A stretch of DNA of 64,000 bases from Mycolicibacterium sp. TY81 (GTDB lineage: Bacteria; Actinomycetota; Actinomycetes; Mycobacteriales; Mycobacteriaceae), in NCBI RefSeq assembly GCF_018326285.1, contig NZ_AP023362.1:3596001-3660000 (forward strand), in the 5' to 3' direction. Below, one piece after another: positions 35,674 through 45,768 of this stretch (its first letter is position 1; each line of letters begins with the position of its first letter). The notes under the pieces were generated by a model. It did not search any database, was not told the origin of the DNA, and saw only the letters and a list, made by a program, of their open reading frames with translations. The translations under genes and the position numbers were made by a program.

Positions 35674-36918
35674 TCAGACCAATTCGTACGCCGGGTCCCG
35701 GTGCAGGGTCGAGTCGATGCCCTCTTCCTCCTCTTCCGCCGAGATCCGCAGCCCCATCATCTTCTTGATGACAAGCGCGATGACGAGGGCCACCGTGAAC
35801 GAGTAGGCCAGGACCGACCCCGCGGCGACGGCCTGCTTGAGCAGCAGGTCTGCGCCGCCGCCGTACAGCAGTCCGTTGACGCCGTTGGGCATGCCCGAGC
35901 TGGCGAAGAAACCGATCAGCAGGGTGCCGACGATGCCGCCGACGAGGTGGACGCCGACGACGTCGGTCGAGTCGTCATAGCCGAACTTGTGCTTGAGCCC
36001 GATGGCGAACGGGCAGATCACCGCCGGGATGAAGCCGACGAAGATGGCGCCGACCGGGGTGACGGCACCACACGCGGGAGTGATGGCGACCAGACCGGTG
36101 ATGGCGCCCGAGGCGGCGCCGATGCCGGTGACGTGGCCGTCCTTGAACTTCTCCACCAGGAGCCAGCCCAGCGTGGCCGCACACGTCGCGACGAACGACG
36201 TGACCATGACGATCGCCGCCGGCTTGCCGGCGGACAGCGCCGAGCCACCGTTGAACGCGTACCAACCGGCCCACAGCAGACCGGCGCCGAGCAGGATGAG
36301 CGGCACGTTGTGCGGCTTACGTGACGACCAGGTCGCCGAGCGGCCGAGCACCAGCGCCACCGCGAGCGCAGCCGCGCCCGCGTTGATGTGGACCGCCGTG
36401 CCACCGGCGAAGTCGATGGCGTGCAGCTTGTTGGCGATCCAGCCGCCCTTGGCGTCACTCGTGACGACGCCGTCGACCGCGAAAACCCAATGGGCGACCG
36501 GGAAGTAGACCAGAATTGCCCACGCCGTCGCGAACGTCATCCAGGCCGCGAACTTCATCCGGTCCGCGGCGGCACCCGAGACGATCGCCACGGTCAGCGC
36601 CGCGAAGAGCGCCTGGAACAGCGCGAACAAGCTGACCGGCAGGCCGTTGATGGTGGTCATCGGGTCCAGGAGGTTCTTCATCCCCGCGAACTCGGTGAAG
36701 CTCCCGACGAATCCGCCATAGGAAGTGCCGAACGCCATGGAGAAGCCGAACAGCACCCACAGCACTCCGACGACCGCCACGGCGCCGTACGTCATCATCA
36801 TCATGTTGGTCGAACTCTTCACACTGACCATGCCGCCGTAGAACAGGGCCAGCCCCGGGATCATGATGGTGAGCCCAATGATGCAACAGAGCATGAATGC
36901 TGTTGTTCCGGTATCCAT
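35674..36918 (-). CDS. amt: Ammonium transporter Amt
   Basis: A 414-residue ammonium channel with 11 hydrophobic helices. ATG 36918 (MDTGTTAFMLCC) is chosen because GAGGAGGCG precedes it and family homology starts here. Typical segments: PGLALFYGGMV, DFAGGTAVHINAGAAALA with a pore histidine, the second conserved histidine in VGVHLVGGIVGTLLIGFF, and a short cytosolic C-terminus (RISAEEEEEGIDSTLHRDPAYELV). It is divergent from glnT over GlnR-like repeats and so should be induced under nitrogen limitation. No PII (glnK) gene is adjacent. Confidence 0.95.
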   Translation of the reverse strand: MDTGTTAFMLCCIIGLTIMIPGLALFYGGMVSVKSSTNMMMMTYGAVAVVGVLWVLFGFSMAFGTSYGGFVGSFTEFAGMKNLLDPMTTINGLPVSLFALFQALFAALTVAIVSGAAADRMKFAAWMTFATAWAILVYFPVAHWVFAVDGVVTSDAKGGWIANKLHAIDFAGGTAVHINAGAAALAVALVLGRSATWSSRKPHNVPLILLGAGLLWAGWYAFNGGSALSAGKPAAIVMVTSFVATCAATLGWLLVEKFKDGHVTGIGAASGAITGLVAITPACGAVTPVGAIFVGFIPAVICPFAIGLKHKFGYDDSTDVVGVHLVGGIVGTLLIGFFASSGMPNGVNGLLYGGGADLLLKQAVAAGSVLAYSFTVALVIALVIKKMMGLRISAEEEEEGIDSTLHRDPAYELV

Positions 36919-37004
36919 TTCGCCTCCTCGCAAGTTCGGGGCACAGGCTATGCCCGTCTCGGGACAGTAGACATCGTTTTCTTTGCGTAGACGAGATGGT
37001 GCGC

Positions 37005-37043
37005 GTAACAAGCTTGTGAACGACCTCGTAACGCCGAAGTTAC
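37005..37043. promoter_or_regulatory. GlnR-like box between amt and glnT
   Basis: The spacing series GTGAAC (37016-37021), GTAAC (37028-37032), GTTAC (37039-37043) gives two consecutive AC-n9-AC steps. A further GTAAC lies at 37005-37009 one base out of phase. Actinobacterial GlnR binds such AC-n9-AC a/b-site tandem repeats at ammonium-assimilation promoters. The position, 79-118 bases before glnT and about 87-125 bases before amt, suits control of both. Confidence 0.65.
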
Positions 37044-37122
37044 GTAGCTGCTGTTGCAATCCCCAAGTCGCCCATGTCTACTATTGAGAAACGATGATTC
37101 CTATCAGTAGTCGGGAGTTGGC

Positions 37123-38460
37123 ATGACGAAGCCCACCACACTTGCGGAGTTGGCCGCCCAGGCGGGAACCAAGTTCATCCTCGCGCTCTTCGTCGACCTG
37201 AACGGCAAGCCGTGCGCGAAGCTGGTGCCAGTCGAAGCGGTCGACGAACTCGCCACCGACGGAGTCGGGTTCGCCGGCTACGCGGTCGGCGCGATCGGCC
37301 AGGAACCGAAAGACCCCGATCTGGTCGCCATGCCCGATCCTGCGTCGTTCACACCGATCCCCTTCGTCAAAGAGGGCCTGGCCCTCGTCCATTGCGATCC
37401 GCACGTGAACGGTGAGCCGTGGCCGTTCGCGCCGCGCAACATCCTCAAGGCCATGATCCAGCAGGCCGCCGACGCCGGATTCGAACCGTGGATCGGCGCC
37501 GAGGTCGAGTACTTCCTACTCAAGCGGGACGCCGACGGCGCATTGGTGCCTGCGGACGACCAGGACACCGCGGCCCAACCGTGTTACGACGCCCGCAGTG
37601 TCACCCGGATGTACGACCACCTGTCGTCGATCAGCACCGCGATCAACGGTCTGGGCTGGGGCAACTATGCCAACGATCACGAGGACGGGTCCGGCCAGTT
37701 CGAACAGAACTTCAATTACGCCGAGGCGCTGACCACCTGTGACCGCGTCATCACCCTGCGTTACCTGCTCAACGTGATGGCCGCTGAGCGGGGCATGATC
37801 GCCACGTTCATGCCGAAGCCGTTCGCGAACAAGACCGGATCCGGCCTGCACATGCACATGTCACTCACCAGTGGCGGCGCCCCGGTGTTCCCGACCGAGC
37901 CCCACGAGGACGACCGCGGCCTCGCGATGTCCGCGACGGCGTACTCGTTCATCGCCGGCATCCTCGATCACGCGTGCGCCATGCAGGCGGTGATCGCGCC
38001 AACGGTCAACTCCTACAAGCGAACCGGCGCCATCTCGACGGCGTCGGGCGCCTCATGGGCGCCGCGCTTTCCGACCTATGGCGGCAACGACCGCACCCAC
38101 TACGTGCGCGTCCCGGACAGCAGTCGCATCGAAATGCGCGGCGCCGACGGTTCGGCCAACCCGTACCTGGCGGCGGCCGTCGCACTCGCCGCCGGACTGG
38201 ACGGCATCAAGCGGGCTGCTGACCCCGGCGCCCTGGGCACGGGACCGAAACAGGAACGCCTCCCCGCCACGCTGTTGCACGCCATCGAACGGCTGGAGAC
38301 CGACGAGGTGATGACCGGCGCCCTGGATGCCGCCATCCCGCCCAACACCGATATCCCCAGTGTCGCCGCCTATTTCGCCCGTCTGAAGAAGACCGAGTTC
38401 TGGGACTGGCATTCCGCGGTCGGCGCCTGGGAACACGAGCGCTACCTCACCGCTTTCTGA
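37123..38460 (+). CDS. glnT: Type III glutamine synthetase-like ligase (GlnT / gamma-glutamylmethylamide synthetase-like)
   Basis: A 445-residue GlnA-fold amine ligase. ATP-grasp-unrelated GS motifs visible: WIGAEVEYFLL, NDHEDGSGQFEQNF, GSGLHMHMSL (ATP/metal loop), TVNSYKRTG and the SRIEMRGADGSANPYL Arg/Asp region. The N-terminal FILALFVDLNGKPCAKLVP fits the GlnT/GMAS branch, not GlnA1. Enzymes here make glutamine or gamma-glutamyl-alkylamides from glutamate, ATP and ammonia or an amine. Followed by glxBCD, so the amide product may feed a split glutamate-synthase-like enzyme. GGGAG precedes the ATG. Confidence 0.9.
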   Translation: MTKPTTLAELAAQAGTKFILALFVDLNGKPCAKLVPVEAVDELATDGVGFAGYAVGAIGQEPKDPDLVAMPDPASFTPIPFVKEGLALVHCDPHVNGEPWPFAPRNILKAMIQQAADAGFEPWIGAEVEYFLLKRDADGALVPADDQDTAAQPCYDARSVTRMYDHLSSISTAINGLGWGNYANDHEDGSGQFEQNFNYAEALTTCDRVITLRYLLNVMAAERGMIATFMPKPFANKTGSGLHMHMSLTSGGAPVFPTEPHEDDRGLAMSATAYSFIAGILDHACAMQAVIAPTVNSYKRTGAISTASGASWAPRFPTYGGNDRTHYVRVPDSSRIEMRGADGSANPYLAAAVALAAGLDGIKRAADPGALGTGPKQERLPATLLHAIERLETDEVMTGALDAAIPPNTDIPSVAAYFARLKKTEFWDWHSAVGAWEHERYLTAF

Positions 38461-38525
38461 GCACTGCAGCAAAACCGCTGTCGGCCAACAACATCGGGCC
38501 GCGACGAGAAAGGACCAGTACAACC

Positions 38526-39437
38526 ATGTGCGGAATCGTCGGGTTGCACCTGCGCAACCCCGAGCTCTATCCCAGGCTGGGTGAACTGTTGGCCGGCATG
38601 CTGACCGCCATGGAGGCGCGCGGCGCCGACTCCGCCGGCATCGCCGTGTATGGCGACCCCGAGTGGTCACCGCCGGGACAGAGCACCATCTCGCTGATCG
38701 AAGTCGGCGAGTCCCCCGAACAGGTCGCGGAAGCACTCGGCGCCCGCCTGAGCGCCGAAATCACGGTCATCGCGCGCGATGTGACCTATCTGGTGTCGGC
38801 GTCCACGACGCCCGAGGCACTGCTCGCCGCGGCCAAGGCGGTGTACCCGCACGCTCTCGTCGGCGGATTCGGCACCGATGTGGCGGTGCTCAAGGGCGTC
38901 GGCACGCCCACGTCGCTGGTCGAGAACTGGGGCTTGGCCGGCGCACAGGGCTGGCAGGGCGTCGGCCATACCCGGATGGCCACCGAATCGGCGGTGACGC
39001 CCAGCGGCGCACATCCGTATGCGGTGGGCCCGGATCAGTGTCTGGTGCACAACGGTTCGTTCGCCAACCACGCCGGCATCCGACGTAACCTACGCGCGGC
39101 CGGTGTCGAATTCGATTCCGAGAACGACACCGAGGTCGGTGCCCGCTTCGTGGCCCACGAGCTGGCGGCGGGATCCGACGTCGAGCAGGCCCTGACCGAT
39201 CTGACGACAACATTCGACGGCTTCTACACCCTGCTGGTCTCCAACAGCGACAGCTTCGCCATCGTCCGCGACGCCATCGCGTGCAAACCGGCGGTCATCG
39301 CCGAGACCACGGACTGGGTGGCCATGGCATCGGAGTTCCGCGCCCTGGCGCACCTGCCGGGGATCGAGGACGCCCGCATCTGGGAGCCCGAACCCGAAGT
39401 GGTCTACGCCTGGAGCCGAGAGGCGGTGCCGGCATGA
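38526..39437 (+). CDS. glxB: Class II glutamine amidotransferase subunit (GlxB/MgsA-like)
   Basis: A 303-residue class II (Ntn-type) glutaminase domain protein. Cys2 becomes the N-terminal nucleophile (MCGIVGLHLRN), and GARGADSAGIAVYG, GWQGVGHTRMATES (ammonia-site Arg), NGSFANHAGIR are family hallmarks. It releases ammonia from glutamine, or amine from a gamma-glutamylamide, for the GlxC/GlxD partners. Its stop overlaps glxC by 4 bases. Confidence 0.92.
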   Translation: MCGIVGLHLRNPELYPRLGELLAGMLTAMEARGADSAGIAVYGDPEWSPPGQSTISLIEVGESPEQVAEALGARLSAEITVIARDVTYLVSASTTPEALLAAAKAVYPHALVGGFGTDVAVLKGVGTPTSLVENWGLAGAQGWQGVGHTRMATESAVTPSGAHPYAVGPDQCLVHNGSFANHAGIRRNLRAAGVEFDSENDTEVGARFVAHELAAGSDVEQALTDLTTTFDGFYTLLVSNSDSFAIVRDAIACKPAVIAETTDWVAMASEFRALAHLPGIEDARIWEPEPEVVYAWSREAVPA

Positions 39438-40114
39438 GCGACGCGCCAACGACTTTCGACCTGTCGACGGTGAGTCTGCGTGACGTCAATGCGGCCCTGC
39501 ACGCCGACGGCATCGACGGCCAGTTCGTCATCACCAATCCCCAAGGCGCGCACAACGTGGCCGTCGGAGTCAACTCGCCGGTCGAGATCACGGTGCACGG
39601 CCACGTCGGCTACTACGCCGCCGGCATGAACCAGAAGGCCGAGATCACCGTCAACGGCAACGCCGGACAAGGTCTGGCGGAGAACATGATGAGCGGTGTC
39701 GTCCATGTCACCGGCGACGCATCGCAATCGGCGGGCGCCACGGGGCGCGGCGGACTGCTCGTCATCGACGGCAACGCCGCCGCCCGGTGTGGCATCTCGC
39801 TGAAAGGGCTGGACATCGTCATCGGAGGCTCAGTGGGCCACATGAGCGCCTTCATGGCACAGAAGGGCCGCATCGTCATCCGCGGTGACGCCGGCGACGC
39901 CCTCGGCGACTCGATCTACGAGGCCCGGCTGTACGTCCGAGGCGAAGTGAAATCCCTTGGTGCGGACTGCATCGAGAAACCGATGGAGGCCGAACACCTC
40001 GAGGAGCTCGCGGGCCTGCTCAAGGCGGCGGGCTACGACGACGACCCGGCCACGTACCGGCGCTACGGCTCGGCCCGCAACCTCTATCACTTCCAAGCAC
40101 ACAACTCCTACTGA
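39434..40114 (+). CDS. glxC: GXGXG-domain glutamate-synthase-like subunit (GlxC/MgsB-like)
   Basis: A 226-residue right-handed beta-helix protein matching the C-terminal GXGXG domain of glutamate synthase. Repeats such as VHGHVGYYAAGMNQKAEITVNGNAGQGLAENM and GDAGDALGDSIYEARLYVRGEVKSLG give the periodic Gly pattern. In GltB this domain is structural and helps hold the ammonia tunnel; here it is a free subunit between the amidotransferase and synthase subunits. ATG 39434 overlaps the glxB stop. Confidence 0.9.
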   Translation: MSDAPTTFDLSTVSLRDVNAALHADGIDGQFVITNPQGAHNVAVGVNSPVEITVHGHVGYYAAGMNQKAEITVNGNAGQGLAENMMSGVVHVTGDASQSAGATGRGGLLVIDGNAAARCGISLKGLDIVIGGSVGHMSAFMAQKGRIVIRGDAGDALGDSIYEARLYVRGEVKSLGADCIEKPMEAEHLEELAGLLKAAGYDDDPATYRRYGSARNLYHFQAHNSY

Positions 40115-40128
40115 TTGGAGGCCAGCTC

Positions 40129-41484
40129 ATGACCTTCTCGGCAGACGACCGCGCCAACCGCGGTCTACGCGAGTCCGCCACCTTCGACCGCACGACCATC
40201 GCCGCCATCCACCGGGCGGCGGAGACCGGCATCTACGACATCCGCGGCTGGGGCGCCAAGCGCGCACTCCCCCATTTCGACGACCTCCTCTTCCTCGGCG
40301 CGTCGATGTCGCGCTACCCTCTGGAGGGCTACCGCGAGAAGTGCGGCACCGATGTGGTGTTGGGCGCACGGAACGCCAAATACCCACTGCACCTGGATAT
40401 CCCGGTCACCATCGCCGGCATGTCGTTCGGGGCGCTGTCCGGCCGCGCCAAGGAGGCGCTCGGACGCGGCGCCTCAGAAGTGGGTACGTCGACCACCACG
40501 GGAGACGGCGGCATGACGCCCGAGGAACGTGGCCACTCCAAACACCTTGTCTACCAATACCTGCCGAACCGGTACGGAATGAACCCGGACGACCTACGCC
40601 GCGCCGACGCCATCGAGGTGGTACTCGGCCAGGGCGCCAAGCCCGGTGGTGGCGGAATGCTGCTGGGCCAGAAGGTCTCCGAACGGGTCGCCGGGATGCG
40701 CGACCTGCCACAGGGCATCGACCAGCGCTCGGCGTCGCGGCACCCCGACTGGACCGGCCCTGACGACCTGACCATCAAGATCAACGAGCTCCGTGAGATC
40801 ACCGATTGGGAGAAGCCGATCTACGTCAAGGTCGGCGCATCGCGCACGTACTACGACGTCAAACTCGCGGTCCACGCCGGCGCCGACGTCGTCGTGGTCG
40901 ACGGCATGCAGGGCGGCACCGCGGCCACCCAAGAGGTGTTCATCGAGCACGTCGGCATCCCCACCCTGGCCGCAGTACCGCAAGCCGTGCAGGCCCTGCA
41001 GGAACTCGGCGTACACCGCAAGCCCGACGGCGTGCAATTGATCGTGTCCGGCGGCATCCGCACCGGCGCCGACGTCGCGAAAGCACTGGCGCTGGGAGCC
41101 GACGCCGTCGCGATCGGCACCGCTGCATTGATCGCGCTCGGCGACAACCACCCGAAGTACGAGGCCGAGTACGCCCAACTCGGCTCGGCAGCAGGGTTTT
41201 TCGACGACTTCCAGGACGGCCAGGACCCAGCAGGCATCACCACGCAGGATCCGGTGTTGCAGCAGGCGCTGGACCCGGTCGACGGCGGCCGCCGCGTCGC
41301 CAACTACCTGCGCGTCTTGACGATGGAGGCACAGACCATCGCACGCGCCTGCGGCAAGGCACACGTCACGCACCTGGAGCCTGAGGACATGGTTGCCGTG
41401 TCCATCGAAGCCGCCGCCATGGCGCGGGTGCCGTTGGCCGGCACGTCGTGGATCCCGGGCCACTCCGCGGCAGGTGGTTTCTGA
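40129..41484 (+). CDS. glxD: FMN-binding glutamate-synthase-like subunit (GlxD/MgsC-like)
   Basis: A 451-residue FMN TIM-barrel of the glutamate synthase central/synthase type. PVTIAGMSFGALSGRAKEALGRGA, EVGTSTTTGDGGMTPEE, GQGAKPGGGGMLLGQKV, VVVDGMQGGTAATQ and LIVSGGIRTGADVAKALALGADAVAIGTA are the flavin and substrate loops. The stretch that in relatives carries the Fe-S cysteines before PVGITTQDP reads GFFDDFQDGQDPAGITTQDP, without any cysteine; only two cysteines remain in the whole protein. GTGG-type ribosome site GGAGG precedes ATG 40129. The stop/start TGATG couples it to the flavoprotein gene. Confidence 0.92.
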   Translation: MTFSADDRANRGLRESATFDRTTIAAIHRAAETGIYDIRGWGAKRALPHFDDLLFLGASMSRYPLEGYREKCGTDVVLGARNAKYPLHLDIPVTIAGMSFGALSGRAKEALGRGASEVGTSTTTGDGGMTPEERGHSKHLVYQYLPNRYGMNPDDLRRADAIEVVLGQGAKPGGGGMLLGQKVSERVAGMRDLPQGIDQRSASRHPDWTGPDDLTIKINELREITDWEKPIYVKVGASRTYYDVKLAVHAGADVVVVDGMQGGTAATQEVFIEHVGIPTLAAVPQAVQALQELGVHRKPDGVQLIVSGGIRTGADVAKALALGADAVAIGTAALIALGDNHPKYEAEYAQLGSAAGFFDDFQDGQDPAGITTQDPVLQQALDPVDGGRRVANYLRVLTMEAQTIARACGKAHVTHLEPEDMVAVSIEAAAMARVPLAGTSWIPGHSAAGGF

Positions 41485-42662
41485 TGGCGTCGAAAGCCGT
41501 GATCATCGGTGGCGGCCTCATCGGACTGTCCATCGCACACTCCCTGACTCAGCGCGGGCTCACGGATATCCTTGTCCTGGAACGGCATCAGCTGGCCAGC
41601 GGCGGCACCGGAAAATCATCGGGCATCGTCCGCGCCCACTACGGTGTGCCGTCGATCGCCGCGATGGCCTGGCGCAGCCTGCCGGTGATCGAACAGCTGG
41701 GAGACGCCGTCGGCTTCCGCCAGGTCGGCTACACCGTGCTCGTCGGTGACGAGAACGTCGACGCCCTGAGCGCGAACACGGCCATGCATCAATCGCTCGG
41801 CGTCGAGGTCGAACTGATCGACACCGACACCCTGCAGAAACTGTGGCCGATGCTCGAAACCTCCGATGTGGCACTGGCTTCCTACGAACCACGCGGCGGA
41901 TTCGCCGACGCCACCCAGCTGGCACTGCACTTCGGGCAGGCAGCCCGGGCGGCGGGGGCCAGGATCCGGCAGAACACGCCCGTCGCCCGCGTCGTGACAG
42001 CCGGCGACAAGGTCACCGGGGTCATGCTGGAGAACGGTGACCTCATCGACGCCGATCTGGTGATCGTGGCCAACGGCTGGTGGTCGGCAAAGTTGTTGGC
42101 CGCCATGGGCATCGACTTTCCCATCGAGGCGTATCGATCGGAACTGCTGATCGTCGACGCCGGCACACCGCTGCCGGACCTGCCGGTGATCTCCGACTTG
42201 ATCAGCCTGCAGTACTGCCGCGTCGAAGGCTCCGGCCAGTTTCTGGTCGGCAACAGCGACCACGCCGACTTCCAGAAGAAGTTCGTCGACCCGGACAACT
42301 ACTCGAATGTCGCGGCGGAGGCATCCGTCCTGGCCTACGGCGAAAAGGTGATGCACCGGTTCCCCGGCTTCCCCGAGCCGGCGGTGACCCACACCTACGC
42401 CGGCGTGTATGACGTTCCGCCGGACTGGAATCCGGTGATCGCGCCGGTCGGTGGGGTCGACGGGTTGATCCTGGCGGCCGGGTTCGCCGGTCACGGATTC
42501 AAGATCAGCCCCGCGGTCGGTGAGCTGGTCGCGGATCTGGTATTCGAGGGCGACAGCACCGATCCGGATATCCCGGCCACGGACTTCCGGCTGGAACGGT
42601 TCGCCGAAGGCAAGCCGCTCAACAGCCTGCACCCGTACGCCGGTGCGGGCGAGATGCGCTGA
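41484..42662 (+). CDS. FAD-dependent amine/amino acid oxidoreductase (SoxB/DAO-like)
   Basis: A 392-residue D-amino-acid-oxidase-family flavoprotein. The N-terminal Rossmann motif is VIIGGGLIGLSIAHSL, followed by TGKSSGIVRAHYG (a SoxB/MgdA-like FAD-binding segment) and the C-terminal GLILAAGFAGHGFKISPAVGELVADL. Relatives oxidise N-methyl amino acids such as sarcosine or N-methylglutamate, or glycine-like amines. Its translation is coupled to glxD. The other three subunits of a heterotetrameric N-methylglutamate or sarcosine dehydrogenase are not in the window, so this looks like a monomeric oxidase/dehydrogenase. Confidence 0.9.
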   Translation: MASKAVIIGGGLIGLSIAHSLTQRGLTDILVLERHQLASGGTGKSSGIVRAHYGVPSIAAMAWRSLPVIEQLGDAVGFRQVGYTVLVGDENVDALSANTAMHQSLGVEVELIDTDTLQKLWPMLETSDVALASYEPRGGFADATQLALHFGQAARAAGARIRQNTPVARVVTAGDKVTGVMLENGDLIDADLVIVANGWWSAKLLAAMGIDFPIEAYRSELLIVDAGTPLPDLPVISDLISLQYCRVEGSGQFLVGNSDHADFQKKFVDPDNYSNVAAEASVLAYGEKVMHRFPGFPEPAVTHTYAGVYDVPPDWNPVIAPVGGVDGLILAAGFAGHGFKISPAVGELVADLVFEGDSTDPDIPATDFRLERFAEGKPLNSLHPYAGAGEMR

Positions 42663-42701
42663 TCACGTCACCCTGAATCTCTCTGCCAAGAAGGATCTTT
42701 C

Positions 42702-44018
42702 ATGCCTGACACCGTCACCTCGTTGCTTGCCGAGATCGCCGGCACCGGCGTCGACAACCAGCGCGGCGGCTACACCCGGCCCGTCTATTCGACCGCCGAG
42801 CTCGACCTGCGGTCGTGGTTCGTCGCGCACGCGGCAAAGCGCGGCCTGGACATCGAGACCGACCGCAACGGGATCATCTGGGCCTGGTCGGGCGGAGTCG
42901 GCGACGACGCCGTCGTCACCGGCAGTCACCTGGATTCCGTGCCCGGCGGCGGCGCCTACGACGGGCCGCTCGGGGTGGCGTCGGCGTTGGTCGCTTTCGA
43001 TCTACTGGCCGCCCGCGGTGTCGGCGGGCGGCGGGCCATCGCGGTGTTCCCCGAGGAGGAGGGCTCACGTTTCGGGGTCGCGTGCCTGGGCTCGCGGCTG
43101 CTGACCGGAGCGATCGACCCGGACCGGGCCCGATCACTGACCGACAGCAGCGGAACCACATTCGCCGAGGCAAGTCGTTGTGCCGGAATCGATCCCGCTC
43201 ATCTGGGGCCCGATCCAGACATGGTGCGGCGGATCGGGACGTTCGTGGAACTCCATGTCGAACAGGGCCGCGGGCTGATCGATCTGGGCAGGCCGGTGGC
43301 TGTCGCGTCGTCCATCCTCGGCCACGGCCGGTGGCGGTTGTCCTTCACCGGTGCGGGCAACCACGCCGGCACCACGCTCATGACGGACCGGGCCGATCCC
43401 ATGGTGGCCGCCGCCCGGCTGATCACCGCCGTCCAGTCACAGGCGCGGGCCATCAGCGGCGCACGCGCCACCGTCGGCCGGATCGTCCCGGTGCCCGGCG
43501 GCACCAACGTCATCGCCTCGCGTGTGGATCTCTGGCTGGACGTACGTCACCCCGAGGACGCGGTGACCAAGTTCCTGGTGCACGAGATCGCGGAGGCCGC
43601 CAATGCCGCTGCCGCCGGCGAGGGCTGTGGTGTCACGATGACCGAGGAATCATTCAGCGCCACCGTCGATTTCGATTCGTCGTTGCGTGACGGGCTGAGC
43701 GCTACGCTCGATGACGCGCCGATACTGGGCACCGGCGCGGGGCATGATGCCGGAGTCTTGAAGGATCACGTGCCCACCGCAATGTTGTTCGTGCGCAACC
43801 CCACCGGCGTCTCCCACGCGCCGTCCGAAGCGGTCGAGAACGCGGATGCCGAAGCCGGCTCGGTCGCTCTGGCCGACAGCCTGCAGCACCTCATCGAGGC
43901 CCAGTCGGCCCGTACCGACCCCGACGCGCGTCGTCTACTGACAGTGGACGTTGATGCGTTACGGTTGACAAGTGGAGAACGACGAAACGCTACTTCGCAA
44001 TGCGGGCACCACCCGTAA
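42702..44018 (+). CDS. M20-family amidohydrolase (allantoate / N-carbamoyl amino acid type)
   Basis: A 438-residue dinuclear metallo-amidase. Metal ligands fit H76 (GSHLDSV), D87 (GGAYDGPLGV), E119 region (FPEEEGSRFG), the His in VELHVEQG, and a C-terminal His in SHAPSEAVE. The dimerisation segment TGAGNHAGTTLM is present. Family members (AllC, N-carbamoyl-L-amino-acid hydrolase) open ureido compounds, releasing ammonia, CO2 and an amino acid. The C-terminal about 30 residues run past the usual end and overlap the next gene by 47 bases. This would supply nitrogen to the glnT-glx enzymes. Confidence 0.9.
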   Translation: MPDTVTSLLAEIAGTGVDNQRGGYTRPVYSTAELDLRSWFVAHAAKRGLDIETDRNGIIWAWSGGVGDDAVVTGSHLDSVPGGGAYDGPLGVASALVAFDLLAARGVGGRRAIAVFPEEEGSRFGVACLGSRLLTGAIDPDRARSLTDSSGTTFAEASRCAGIDPAHLGPDPDMVRRIGTFVELHVEQGRGLIDLGRPVAVASSILGHGRWRLSFTGAGNHAGTTLMTDRADPMVAAARLITAVQSQARAISGARATVGRIVPVPGGTNVIASRVDLWLDVRHPEDAVTKFLVHEIAEAANAAAAGEGCGVTMTEESFSATVDFDSSLRDGLSATLDDAPILGTGAGHDAGVLKDHVPTAMLFVRNPTGVSHAPSEAVENADAEAGSVALADSLQHLIEAQSARTDPDARRLLTVDVDALRLTSGERRNATSQCGHHP

Positions 44019-44619
44019 CCGACGGCCCGACGACAAGGTCGAAGAACTCGAGCTCGAGGTCGCCATCGCGCGCAATGTTCGTCAGCTGCGCCACAATTCG
44101 GGTCTGTCGGTCGGAGAGATGGCCGCCCGCATCGGCATCTCCAAGGCCATGCTGTCCAAGGTCGAGAATGCCCAGACGTCCTGCTCGCTGAGCACCCTCG
44201 CGCTGCTGTCCAAAGGTTTCGACGTACCGGTGACCTACCTGTTCCGCGGCGCCGACACCGAACGGCCCGCGTCGTTCGTCAAAGCCGGCAAGGGCACCCC
44301 GATCGTCCGCAGCGGCTCGCAGGCCGGCCACGAATACGAACTACTGGGTGGGCTCCGCGGCGAGCACAAACGCCTGGAATGCCTGATGGTGACGCTCAAC
44401 GAGGACAGTGAGGTCTATCCACTGTTCCAGCATCCCGGGACCGAATTCATCTACATGCTCGACGGCGTCATGGACTACGGCCACGGCCGGTCCGAGTATC
44501 GACTCGAGCCCGGCGACTCACTGCAGTTCGACGGTGAGGGCGTCCACGGGCCCACCCGGCTCATCCGTCTGCCGATCCGTTTTGTGTCGGTCATCGCATT
44601 CCCCGACGGCGCGATATAG
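43972..44619 (+). CDS. XRE-family regulator with cupin sensor domain
   Basis: A 215-residue two-domain regulator. The HTH (NVRQLRHNSGLSVGEMAARIGISKAMLSKVENAQTSCSLSTLALLSKGF) covers about residues 33-82; the cupin-2 barrel (QHPGTEFIYMLDGVMDYGHGRSEYRLEPGDSLQFDGEGVHGPTRL) fills the C-terminus. GTG 43972 lies inside the M20 gene. Such proteins commonly regulate the adjoining amino acid or amine operon, with the cupin binding the inducer. It closes the nitrogen cluster. Confidence 0.9.
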   Translation: MENDETLLRNAGTTRNRRPDDKVEELELEVAIARNVRQLRHNSGLSVGEMAARIGISKAMLSKVENAQTSCSLSTLALLSKGFDVPVTYLFRGADTERPASFVKAGKGTPIVRSGSQAGHEYELLGGLRGEHKRLECLMVTLNEDSEVYPLFQHPGTEFIYMLDGVMDYGHGRSEYRLEPGDSLQFDGEGVHGPTRLIRLPIRFVSVIAFPDGAI

Positions 44620-44682: not shown

Positions 44683-45768
44683 ATGACAGGGGGCCTACTA
44701 CCCGTCGGACAGACCAGGGTGCAGCCGGTTTTTGCCGACGTCGACACCGGCGTAGACGACGCGATGGCACTGGCCTACCTGCTGGCCAGCGCCGACGCCG
44801 AACTGGTGGGCATCGCGTCCACCGCGGGCAACGTCCCGGTCGACCAGGTATGCGTCAACAATCTGGGGCTGCTGCAGTTGTGCGGCGTCGGCCCCATCCC
44901 GGTGTCCAGGGGCTCGAGCGTCCCGCTGGTCGCGCCGTTGCGCACCGCCGAGGACACACACGGCCCGCAGGGACTCGGTTATGCGGAACTGCCCGAGCCC
45001 GACGCCGAGTCCGAAATCGGCGGCGTGCTCACCGACTACGACGCCGCCGAGGCCTGGATCCAGGCCGCACGCGAGTACCCCGGCGAGTTGATCGGTCTCG
45101 TCACCGGCCCGCTGACCAACTTCGCGCTGGCGCTGCGGCAGGAGCCGTCGCTCCCCCGGCTGCTGCGACGCCTGGTGATCATGGGCGGCGCCTTCGACTA
45201 CCGGGGCAACACCACGCCGGTGTCCGAATGGAACATCAGCGTCGACCCGGAGGCCGCCGCCGAGGTGTTCTCGGTGTGGGGCGCGGCGTGGGGTCTGGAG
45301 GACCCCACGCATCTGCCAATAGTGCTGGGGCTCAACCTGACCGAGAACGTCGCGATGACACCGTCGCTGTTGAGCCGGCTGGCTACCGCAGCGGGTGGAC
45401 CGTCGTCGCCGATGAGTGTGCTGGACGATCGCGGGACACGGTCGACGTCATCCAACCCGCTGATCCGGGTGCTGGAAGACGCCATGCGGTTCTACTTCGA
45501 GTTCCATTTCGACCAGGGCGAGGGCTACCTGGCGCACCTGCACGACCCGCTCGCGGCGGCGGTGGCGCTCGACCCGGACATCGTCCGGTACCAGCAGGCG
45601 ACGGTCGACGTGGAACTGCTGGGCACGTTGACGCGCGGCATGACGGTCGCCGACTGGCGCGGACACTGGGGACGCCAGCCCAATGCCCACATCGGCATCG
45701 AGGTCGACCCGGTGGCGTTCTTCGATCGGTTCATCGAGCGCGTCGGGGCCTTCGCATCCAAGTTGTGA
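44683..45768 (+). CDS. iunH: Inosine-uridine-preferring nucleoside hydrolase
   Basis: A 361-residue nucleoside hydrolase. The N-terminal Ca-binding signature FADVDTGVDDAMALAYLL is intact, as are GLVTGPLTNFALAL, LVIMGGAFDYRGNTTPVSEWNISVDPEAA and the C-terminal HDPLAAAVALDP. It cleaves the N-glycosidic bond of ribonucleosides for base salvage. Corresponds in position to M. tuberculosis Rv3393. A weak TAGGGT -10 lies 17 bases before the ATG. It converges on ohr across a hairpin. Confidence 0.93.
   Translation: MTGGLLPVGQTRVQPVFADVDTGVDDAMALAYLLASADAELVGIASTAGNVPVDQVCVNNLGLLQLCGVGPIPVSRGSSVPLVAPLRTAEDTHGPQGLGYAELPEPDAESEIGGVLTDYDAAEAWIQAAREYPGELIGLVTGPLTNFALALRQEPSLPRLLRRLVIMGGAFDYRGNTTPVSEWNISVDPEAAAEVFSVWGAAWGLEDPTHLPIVLGLNLTENVAMTPSLLSRLATAAGGPSSPMSVLDDRGTRSTSSNPLIRVLEDAMRFYFEFHFDQGEGYLAHLHDPLAAAVALDPDIVRYQQATVDVELLGTLTRGMTVADWRGHWGRQPNAHIGIEVDPVAFFDRFIERVGAFASKL

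What the first reader, a model, noticed from the sequence alone, without database searches (positions are those of the whole stretch)
35674..44619. GlnR-associated glnT-glxBCD-flavoprotein-amidohydrolase nitrogen cluster
The sequence shows amt divergent from a GlnT/GMAS-like ligase, then three separate glutamate-synthase-like domains (amidotransferase, GXGXG, FMN synthase), a SoxB-like flavoprotein, an AllC-like amidohydrolase and an XRE-cupin regulator, with stop/start overlaps at glxB-glxC, glxD-flavoprotein and amidohydrolase-regulator. The set resembles gmaS-mgsABC of the N-methylglutamate methylamine pathway but lacks mgdBCD. A single flavoprotein replaces the heterotetramer, and a ureido-hydrolysing enzyme is added. 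Inference: a scavenging route for an N-alkyl or ureido nitrogen compound that may use a gamma-glutamyl amide intermediate.
Basis: partly seen in the sequence, partly recalled or inferred. Interest (0 to 1): 0.75.

Follow-up and report, generated by a model that had tools for sequence, protein, structure and literature searches.

The report
Variant methylamine-use gene cluster
A mycobacterial gene cluster looks like a remodelled version of a known methylamine-to-nitrogen pathway, in which one small flavin enzyme replaces a four-part one and is paired with an enzyme type borrowed from histidine breakdown, perhaps so that the carbon leaves as formate instead of toxic formaldehyde.

Summary
The genes are as described: amt, glnT, glxB, glxC, glxD, a flavoprotein ('fox'), an M20 amidohydrolase and an XRE-cupin regulator. 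GlnT carries nine of ten published active-site residues of gamma-glutamylmethylamide synthetase and lacks the glutamine synthetase ones. In 39 of 43 named actinobacterial glxD loci a DAO flavoprotein lies within the fetched flanks, and alpha or delta subunits of the heterotetramer in none. Eight of the 43 also carry dimethylamine-monooxygenase genes, so methylamine is the best-supported substrate. The 'AllC-like' enzyme is not a ureide enzyme by context: 85 of 113 placeable relatives lie by hutU, so an N-formyl- or other N-C1-acylglutamate is likelier. Within the SoxB-like flavoprotein class a cysteine near the flavin-attachment position is absent in 34 of 34 loci with a linked amidohydrolase and present in 57 of 57 without (three rows set aside; only two changes on the tree). 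HutD genes go with the former. This suggests, unproven, N-methylglutamate to N-formylglutamate to glutamate plus formate. Against: a predicted Streptomyces avermitilis counterpart showed no deformylase activity, M. smegmatis did not grow on methylamine, and one methylamine-pocket residue differs. New variant of a known kind.

The parts
35674..36918 (-). amt, ammonium/methylammonium transporter, divergent from glnT here (same strand as glnT in the mycobacterial loci that hold both)
   Evidence: TIGR00836 404.6 bits; orientation in relatives
37028..37043 (.). palindromic GlnR-like box GTAAC-N6-GTTAC in the amt/glnT intergenic region
   Evidence: 0.31 expected in the window at up to 1 mismatch; loose pattern not enriched; binding not tested here
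37123..38460 (+). glnT, gamma-glutamylmethylamide synthetase-type ligase
   Evidence: TIGR03105; best solved relatives 7cql and 9qur, a GmaS and a glutamate--methylamine ligase; 9 of 10 GmaS residues kept, Q175 to A
38526..39437 (+). glxB, class II glutamine amidotransferase subunit (MgsA-like), starts MCGI
   Evidence: PF13522, PF13537; first residues MCGI (99) or VCGI (5) in 104 of 104 homologues
39434..40114 (+). glxC, GXGXG subunit (MgsB-like), 4-bp overlap with glxB
   Evidence: PF01493, overlap
40129..41484 (+). glxD, FMN glutamate-synthase-like subunit (MgsC-like)
   Evidence: PF01645; only Cys72 and Cys408; the Cys-rich stretch of own GltB is not kept in the alignment
41484..42662 (+). 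fox, single-subunit DAO flavoprotein (SoxB-like class), Val308 where the amidohydrolase-free clusters have Cys
   Evidence: PF01266; residue survey; tree
42702..44018 (+). M20 amidohydrolase ('AllC-like'), predicted N-C1-acylglutamate (N-formylglutamate) amidohydrolase, metal-site motifs intact
   Evidence: NF006770, motifs, hut-operon kinship, tree
43972..44619 (+). XRE-cupin regulator, overlaps the amidohydrolase by 47 bp
   Evidence: PF01381 + PF07883; a homologue in 36 of 43 named actinobacterial loci

Best explanation
A nitrogen-limitation operon that takes nitrogen from methylamine through N-methylglutamate. Amt admits methylammonium or ammonium (inferred). GlnT joins methylamine to glutamate with ATP to give gamma-glutamylmethylamide (inferred from residues and nearest solved enzymes). 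GlxBCD release the amine from that amide and place it on the alpha position, giving N-methylglutamate (inferred from family). Fox, a single DAO flavoprotein, oxidises N-methylglutamate in place of the four-subunit MgdABCD (inferred from position and mutual exclusion). In the subtype seen in this window the oxidation is coupled to an M20 amidohydrolase of hut type acting on an N-C1-acylglutamate, most likely N-formylglutamate, so glutamate is recovered with formate (hypothesis, about 0.33 on its own). In the subtype without it the expected products are glutamate and formaldehyde.
For: GlnT: closest solved structures are GmaS 7cql (362 bits) and glutamate--methylamine ligase 9qur (326) against 188 for the best glutamine synthetase. 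Against residues published for RhGmaS (PMC7948447, passages), K30, A48 (in place of the GS Asp), Y147, D177, E179, E186, N188, W300 (in place of the GS Glu) and R312 are the same in 65 of 65 actinobacterial and 37 of 37 proteobacterial rows. Own genome has other glutamine synthetase genes, two over the GlnA cut-off. Single flavoprotein: in 39 of 43 named actinobacterial glxD loci, soxA or soxD in 0 of 43; soxA or soxB in 29 of 37 proteobacterial loci and a fox-like DAO over 150 bits in 0 of 37. Methylamine: dimethylamine-monooxygenase/HODM genes in 8 of 43 and in the loci of 21 of 94 SoxB-like flavoproteins; S-(hydroxymethyl)mycothiol dehydrogenase beside fox in L043 and L044. Amidohydrolase: 85 of 113 placeable homologues within 20 kb of hutU; Cys absence and amidohydrolase presence go together, HutD likewise.
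Against: M. smegmatis, whose annotated gene set matches the amidohydrolase-free cluster, did not grow on methylamine as nitrogen source (PMC4222082). Methylamine-pocket residue Q175 is Ala in 65 of 65 actinobacterial rows and Gln in 37 of 37 proteobacterial ones, so a larger amine is possible. Own genome has no HODM gene. A predicted alternative N-formylglutamate deformylase (COG0624) from Streptomyces avermitilis showed no deformylase activity (PMC3223725 Table 3). Some fox genes lie without glxD in the fetched stretch, with the amidohydrolase (L212, L219, L221, L223, L224) or without it (L033, L203, L208, L215). MSOX-like flavoproteins keep their Cys with or without the amidohydrolase. No HutD match in this window. 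The Cys trait needs only 2 changes on the tree, so the count is not of independent events.
Confidence: 0.6

Rival explanations
1. The same route but for a larger amine (ethylamine, ethanolamine or similar): GlnT makes another gamma-glutamylamide, GlxBCD another N-alkylglutamate, and fox releases the matching aldehyde.
For: Q175 to Ala in 65 of 65 actinobacterial GlnT rows; M. smegmatis grew GlnR-dependently on ethanolamine but not on methylamine (PMC4222082).
Against: Dimethylamine-monooxygenase neighbours and the formaldehyde-type dehydrogenase beside fox point to N-methyl chemistry; a hut-type acylglutamate hydrolase fits a one-carbon remainder best.
Confidence: 0.2
2. One reading: the amidohydrolase hydrolyses an ureido compound such as allantoate and the cluster pools the ammonia.
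For: Named 'allantoate amidohydrolase' by NF006770 at 583 bits, cut-off 372; metal-site motifs shared with E. coli AllC.
Against: 31% identity to E. coli AllC, AllC model TIGR03176 not met, hut-operon context of the subfamily, HutD and glutamate dehydrogenase neighbours in related loci.
Confidence: 0.1
3. The distant soxBDAG is the real N-methylglutamate dehydrogenase and fox does something else.
For: soxBDAG is present at G000:C1:3735-3740 kb; PMC5023230 assigns genes away from the gma-mgs cluster as mgdA-D in two Mycobacterium strains (passages).
Against: Alpha subunit 994 bits to solved sarcosine oxidase against 401 for a Methylophaga gmaS-linked alpha; glyA lies directly upstream; the fox gene overlaps glxD.
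Confidence: 0.1
4. A back-up ammonium assimilation set: GlnT as glutamine synthetase and GlxBCD as a small glutamate synthase.
For: Amt neighbour and GlnR control of the M. smegmatis counterpart; family name 'type III glutamate--ammonia ligase'.
Against: The glutamine synthetase Asp and Glu positions are Ala and Trp in all rows; no beta subunit among the cluster genes and the Cys-rich stretch of GltB is not kept in GlxD; a flavoprotein lies in 39 of 43 named loci.
Confidence: 0.07

Closest known systems
N-methylglutamate pathway of proteobacteria (gmaS-mgsABC-mgdABCD; Methylophaga loci L131, L137)
   Same: Same ligase type with the same catalytic residues, same three synthase subunits in the same order
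   Different: One DAO flavoprotein replaces MgdABCD; Q175 is Ala; Amt, XRE-cupin and here an M20 amidohydrolase are added; actinobacterial
M. smegmatis msmeg_6259-6264 (amt1, glnT, amidotransferase, FwdC-like, glutamate synthase family, oxidoreductase), GlnR regulon
   Same: Same gene set by annotation, GlnR-dependent expression (PMC4222082, passages read)
   Different: No amidohydrolase of this cluster named in the passages I read; fetched mycobacterial loci other than the window and L034 have the Cys-type flavoprotein; no substrate assigned in those passages
Gma and MgsA-C of Mycobacterium sp. 141 and 155 (PMC5023230, passages read)
   Same: Published hypothesis of the N-methylglutamate pathway in mycobacteria
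   Different: There the dehydrogenase is assigned to mgdA-D genes elsewhere; in the passages I read, no adjacent flavoprotein is named
Actinobacterial hut operons with hutH, hutU, an M20 amidohydrolase, hutF and hutI (L158, L169, L170; L161 with hutU further off)
   Same: Amidohydrolase of the same family; HutD, found in related clusters, is a hut-named gene family too
   Different: There the acylglutamate comes from histidine; own genome has no hutU
Monomeric and heterotetrameric sarcosine oxidases, and 1y56_B (deposited as sarcosine oxidase)
   Same: Family of fox
   Different: Fox is far from each (best 140 bits) and has Gly in the column of the MSOX flavin-linking cysteine

Membership tests
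N-methylglutamate pathway | gamma-glutamylmethylamide synthetase with GmaS residues instead of GS residues | tested here: met
   9 of 10 residues; Q175 is Ala
N-methylglutamate pathway | mgsABC synthase subunits next to it | tested here: met
   glxBCD, order kept
N-methylglutamate pathway | heterotetrameric MgdABCD dehydrogenase | tested here: not met
   None in the locus; the soxBDAG elsewhere reads as sarcosine oxidase
N-methylglutamate pathway | growth on methylamine / enzyme activity | not testable with these tools
   M. smegmatis negative in PMC4222082; no assay for this organism
Allantoate amidohydrolase (AllC) | AllC equivalog score TIGR03176 | tested here: not met
   196.5 bits, cut-off 597.75
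Allantoate amidohydrolase (AllC) | NCBIfam NF006770, named allantoate amidohydrolase | tested here: met
   583.1 bits, cut-off 372; the name is not evidence of activity
Allantoate amidohydrolase (AllC) | purine/allantoin gene neighbourhood | tested here: not met
   No allantoin gene among the ten window genes annotated (a nucleoside hydrolase is the nearest to purines); homologues lie near hutU in 85 of 113 placeable cases
N-formylglutamate amidohydrolase by function | hut-operon position and intact metal site | tested here: inconclusive
   Family in hut operons beside hutF, motifs kept; but the Streptomyces avermitilis test was negative and the window gene is not in a hut operon
HutG family (PF05013, accession recalled) | Pfam match | tested here: not met
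   Only M20 and M28 matches at E up to 0.001
Type III glutamine synthetase | TIGR03105 score and GS ammonium-site residues | tested here: inconclusive
   Score met, ammonium-site Asp and flap Glu absent; GmaS 7cql is deposited under the same family name

The most novel reading that the evidence does not exclude
A formaldehyde-sparing N-methylglutamate pathway: in two actinobacterial lineages a SoxB-like flavoprotein without the flavin-side cysteine oxidises N-methylglutamate twice, through the carbinolamine, to N-formylglutamate, which a hut-type M20 amidohydrolase, often with HutD, splits into glutamate and formate.
Probability: 0.33. Interest if true: 0.85.

Novelty: new variant of a known kind. 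Interest (0 to 1): 0.62.

Why it matters
It gives a GlnR-controlled actinobacterial glnT-glxBCD cluster, for which the papers I read assign no tested substrate, a testable substrate and order of steps, names a candidate for the missing N-methylglutamate dehydrogenase, and replaces the 'allantoate amidohydrolase' label by a testable one. If the formyl route holds, it is a way to use methylamine nitrogen with less free formaldehyde.

Tried and rejected
Rejected: soxBDAG as hidden MgdABCD. Looked for and not found: HODM in the own genome. Weak: the loose GlnR pattern. An ornithine-cyclodeaminase-like gene as a general substitute for GlxBCD was looked for in the fetched loci: next to fox and the amidohydrolase only in L159 and L160, with a weak 29% match in L104, so it stays an idea. 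Formaldehyde dehydrogenase as a mark of amidohydrolase-free loci: 5 of 58 Cys loci against 1 of 35 Cys-less loci, too few to use. Fisher tests were run but are not used as evidence because the loci are related. Cys position: by the alignment it is one residue after the MSOX flavin-linking Cys, so I do not claim that it binds FAD. No structure was predicted. A HutG gene was looked for by Pfam in ten frames of L158, L161, L169 and L170 and not seen; not every frame there was scanned.

Literature: searches (N-formylglutamate with allantoate amidohydrolase; with N-methylglutamate) gave 0 papers; one gave 8 and 80 gave 5, none opened; one gave 531, first 15 listed, none opened; others gave 6, 21, 3, 9 and 1. 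Opened, passages only: PMC4222082, PMC4617892, PMC5023230, PMC7948447, PMC3223725. The claim that the coupling is unpublished rests on these searches only, in an open-licence library.

Limits of counts: the named loci are the best 80 of 588 with flanks of up to 9 kb; hutU places were not listed for 25 of 138 amidohydrolase matches; 6 duplicate flavoproteins were dropped, but the GlnT rows hold some duplicate genomes. Set aside from the Cys count: L235_1356 (34% identity, residue P) and L249 (residue V, contig ends 588 bp past fox) from the no-amidohydrolase group, and L167 (Cys; amidohydrolase 11 kb away beside hutF) from the other. Of the 34, five (L212, L219, L221, L223, L224) have no glxD in the fetched stretch; of the 57, four do not (L033, L203, L208, L215). 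HutD was sought with two query proteins at 60 bits in the whole fetched stretch.
Full report
WHAT IS THERE. Nine frames were read: amt (minus strand), then glnT, glxB, glxC, glxD, fox, an M20 amidohydrolase, an XRE-cupin regulator and, after 63 bp, a nucleoside hydrolase. The genome is 6.47 Mb in 4 contigs. It is a mycobacterium by inference: the best named flavoprotein hit is from Mycobacterium sp. MAA66, 91%, and a same-genus genome carries the identical flavoprotein segment of a named Mycolicibacterium parafortuitum locus. The nucleoside hydrolase had no match at 60 bits or more in the other fetched loci, so I leave it out of the system.

GLNT IS OF THE METHYLAMINE-LIGASE TYPE. Best solved matches are GmaS 7cql, 362 bits, and glutamate--methylamine ligase 9qur, 326 bits; the best glutamine synthetase scores 188. 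PMC7948447 (passages read) lists the residues of Rhodovulum GmaS; I mapped them through the printed alignment. Nine of ten are the same in 65 of 65 actinobacterial and 37 of 37 proteobacterial rows, among them Ala in place of the GS Asp and Trp in place of the GS Glu. The tenth, Q175 of the methylamine pocket, is Ala in all 65 actinobacterial rows and Gln in all 37 others. That is a real difference and leaves room for a larger amine. The rows include a few duplicate genomes.

GLXBCD. GlxB and its homologues begin with MCGI or VCGI in 104 of 104 rows. GlxD has only two cysteines, 72 and 408; a third Cys column is Cys in 95 of 106 rows but Ser here, and the Cys-rich stretch of the own GltB, which in glutamate synthase carries the iron-sulphur cluster (recalled), is not kept in the alignment. 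With no beta subunit among the cluster genes, a redox-neutral exchange on FMN is my inference.

ONE FLAVOPROTEIN IN PLACE OF FOUR SUBUNITS. The scan returned 80 named loci, 43 actinobacterial and 37 proteobacterial. A DAO flavoprotein lies in 39 of the 43 (not in L077, L102, L117, L122); soxA or soxD in 0 of 43. Of the 37 proteobacterial loci, 29 hold soxA or soxB within the fetched flank, 8 do not, and none holds a fox-like DAO over 150 bits. The XRE-cupin regulator is in 36 of 43, amt in 20, the amidohydrolase in 11, dimethylamine-monooxygenase/HODM genes in 8 (Pfam names). There are two flavoprotein classes: a SoxB-like one (window, mycobacteria, Nocardia, Nocardioides) and an MSOX-like one (Streptomyces, Sinomonas and others). 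Spread of the SoxB-like one: 16 of 61 relatives (E up to 1e-60), 32 of 397 in the order and 28 of 341 in the family of G274, both at E up to 1e-90. In G060 the parts are split: glnT-glxBCD on one contig (L067) and fox beside dimethylamine-monooxygenase genes on another (L033).

WHY METHYLAMINE. Dimethylamine monooxygenase produces methylamine (established knowledge of that enzyme). HODM lies in the locus of 21 of 94 SoxB-like flavoproteins. S-(hydroxymethyl)mycothiol dehydrogenase, the mycothiol-dependent formaldehyde enzyme, sits next to fox in L043 and L044. PMC5023230 (passages) already proposed the N-methylglutamate pathway for two Mycobacterium strains, with mgdA-D genes elsewhere. Against: in PMC4222082 (passages) methylamine did not support growth of M. 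smegmatis, although msmeg_6259-6264 are 5- to 16-fold higher with GlnR than without; PMC4617892 (passages) shows 2- to 3-fold induction of four of these genes under nitrogen limitation. The own genome has no HODM.

THE AMIDOHYDROLASE. In 296 genomes of the class it has 138 matches at E up to 1e-90 in 135 genomes. For 25 the genome has hutU but its place was not listed; of the other 113, 85 lie within 20 kb of hutU. Four such operons were looked at (L158, L161, L169, L170): hutH, hutI and hutF, with the amidohydrolase beside hutF; hutU is there too except in L161, where it lies outside the fetched stretch. No HutG was seen in the ten further frames scanned. Own genome: no hutU. The closest relatives (66-71% identity, five besides the own) sit near glxD in four cases, and the fifth, G250, sits beside a flavoprotein. 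The protein is 31% identical to E. coli AllC. On a tree of 26 rows the glx label needs at least four changes among hut- and fox-linked rows, so recruitment more than once is likely. A direct test stands against the formyl reading: PMC3223725 Table 3 (passage) reports no deformylase activity for a Streptomyces avermitilis protein predicted as an alternative N-formylglutamate deformylase (COG0624).

THE LINKED CYSTEINE. I collected 116 unique DAO proteins, 94 of them SoxB-like. Where the amidohydrolase-free ones read GCYD, the window reads GVYD (Val308). With an amidohydrolase in the fetched stretch: 35, of which 23 Val, 11 Ala and one Cys; the Cys one (L167) has its amidohydrolase 11 kb away beside hutF. 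Without: 59, of which 57 Cys, one Pro (a divergent 34% protein) and one Val whose contig ends 588 bp on. Setting those three aside with reasons gives 34 of 34 against 57 of 57. The tree needs two changes, both forced by supported branches; the Ala clade (Nocardia, Rhodococcus, Gordonia, Williamsia and others) has a Cys-bearing sister. So there are two events, not 34. Both clades use amidohydrolases of different subtypes (48-52% and 64-77% identity to the window's), so the partner is kept although its version changes. HutD-family genes occur in 15 of 35 Cys-less loci and 0 of 58 Cys loci; 10 of those 15 are confirmed by Pfam, all 10 frames sent matched, and L218 adds one more. The window itself has no HutD match. 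L212 reads glutamate dehydrogenase - HutD - amidohydrolase - fox, and L219 has a large glutamate dehydrogenase before fox: glutamate is the plausible end product. Against a strict rule: the 22 MSOX-like proteins all keep their Cys, seven of them in loci with an amidohydrolase, and one of these, L165, has HutD as well.

MECHANISM AND STATUS. Shown by sequence: gene content, residues, co-occurrence. Inferred: methylamine as substrate, N-methylglutamate as intermediate, fox as its oxidising enzyme. Hypothesis: oxidation to N-formylglutamate and hydrolysis to glutamate and formate. By the alignment the cysteine is one residue after the MSOX flavin-linking one, so its role is unknown. L159 and L160 show flavoprotein, amidohydrolase, amt and an ornithine-cyclodeaminase-like gene without glnT or glxBCD in the stretch, which may be another way to make an N-alkylglutamate; this is a guess.

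VERDICT. New variant of a known kind.

Noticed in passing
L010 5770-13840 (G000:C1:3733-3742 kb): Own genome has glyA-soxBDAG with an S-(hydroxymethyl)mycothiol dehydrogenase on the opposite strand beside it: a sarcosine oxidase locus.
   Followed up: yes
L159 917-5943, L160 6061-11889: Ornithine-cyclodeaminase-like gene, flavoprotein, amidohydrolase and amt in a row, with a divergent LysR gene (Pfam in L159) and no glnT or glxBCD in the stretch; may make an N-alkylglutamate by another route.
   Followed up: partly
L212 5437-10148: Glutamate dehydrogenase, HutD and amidohydrolase with overlapping ends, then fox; no glxD in the fetched stretch.
   Followed up: partly
L223 7891-12080: Acyl-CoA-dehydrogenase-like protein plus flavin reductase next to fox and the amidohydrolase: a possible two-component monooxygenase in the same pathway.
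   Followed up: no
L033 7168-9741, L208 371-6031, L215 7291-9974: Cys-type fox beside dimethylamine-monooxygenase genes without glxD in the stretch; in G060 (L033) the glnT-glxBCD set lies on another contig (L067).
   Followed up: partly
window 44683-45768: Nucleoside hydrolase 63 bp after the regulator; no match at 60 bits or more in the other fetched loci.
   Followed up: partly
GlxD homologues, alignment column 202: A column that is Cys in 95 of 106 GlxD homologues is Ser in the window and nine others and Ala in one; its role is unknown.
   Followed up: no
L074 13646-14959, L075 4035-5447, L105 4125-5456: A very divergent amt-like protein (26-28% identity) beside the cluster in Nocardioidaceae, possibly a methylammonium-type transporter.
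   Followed up: no
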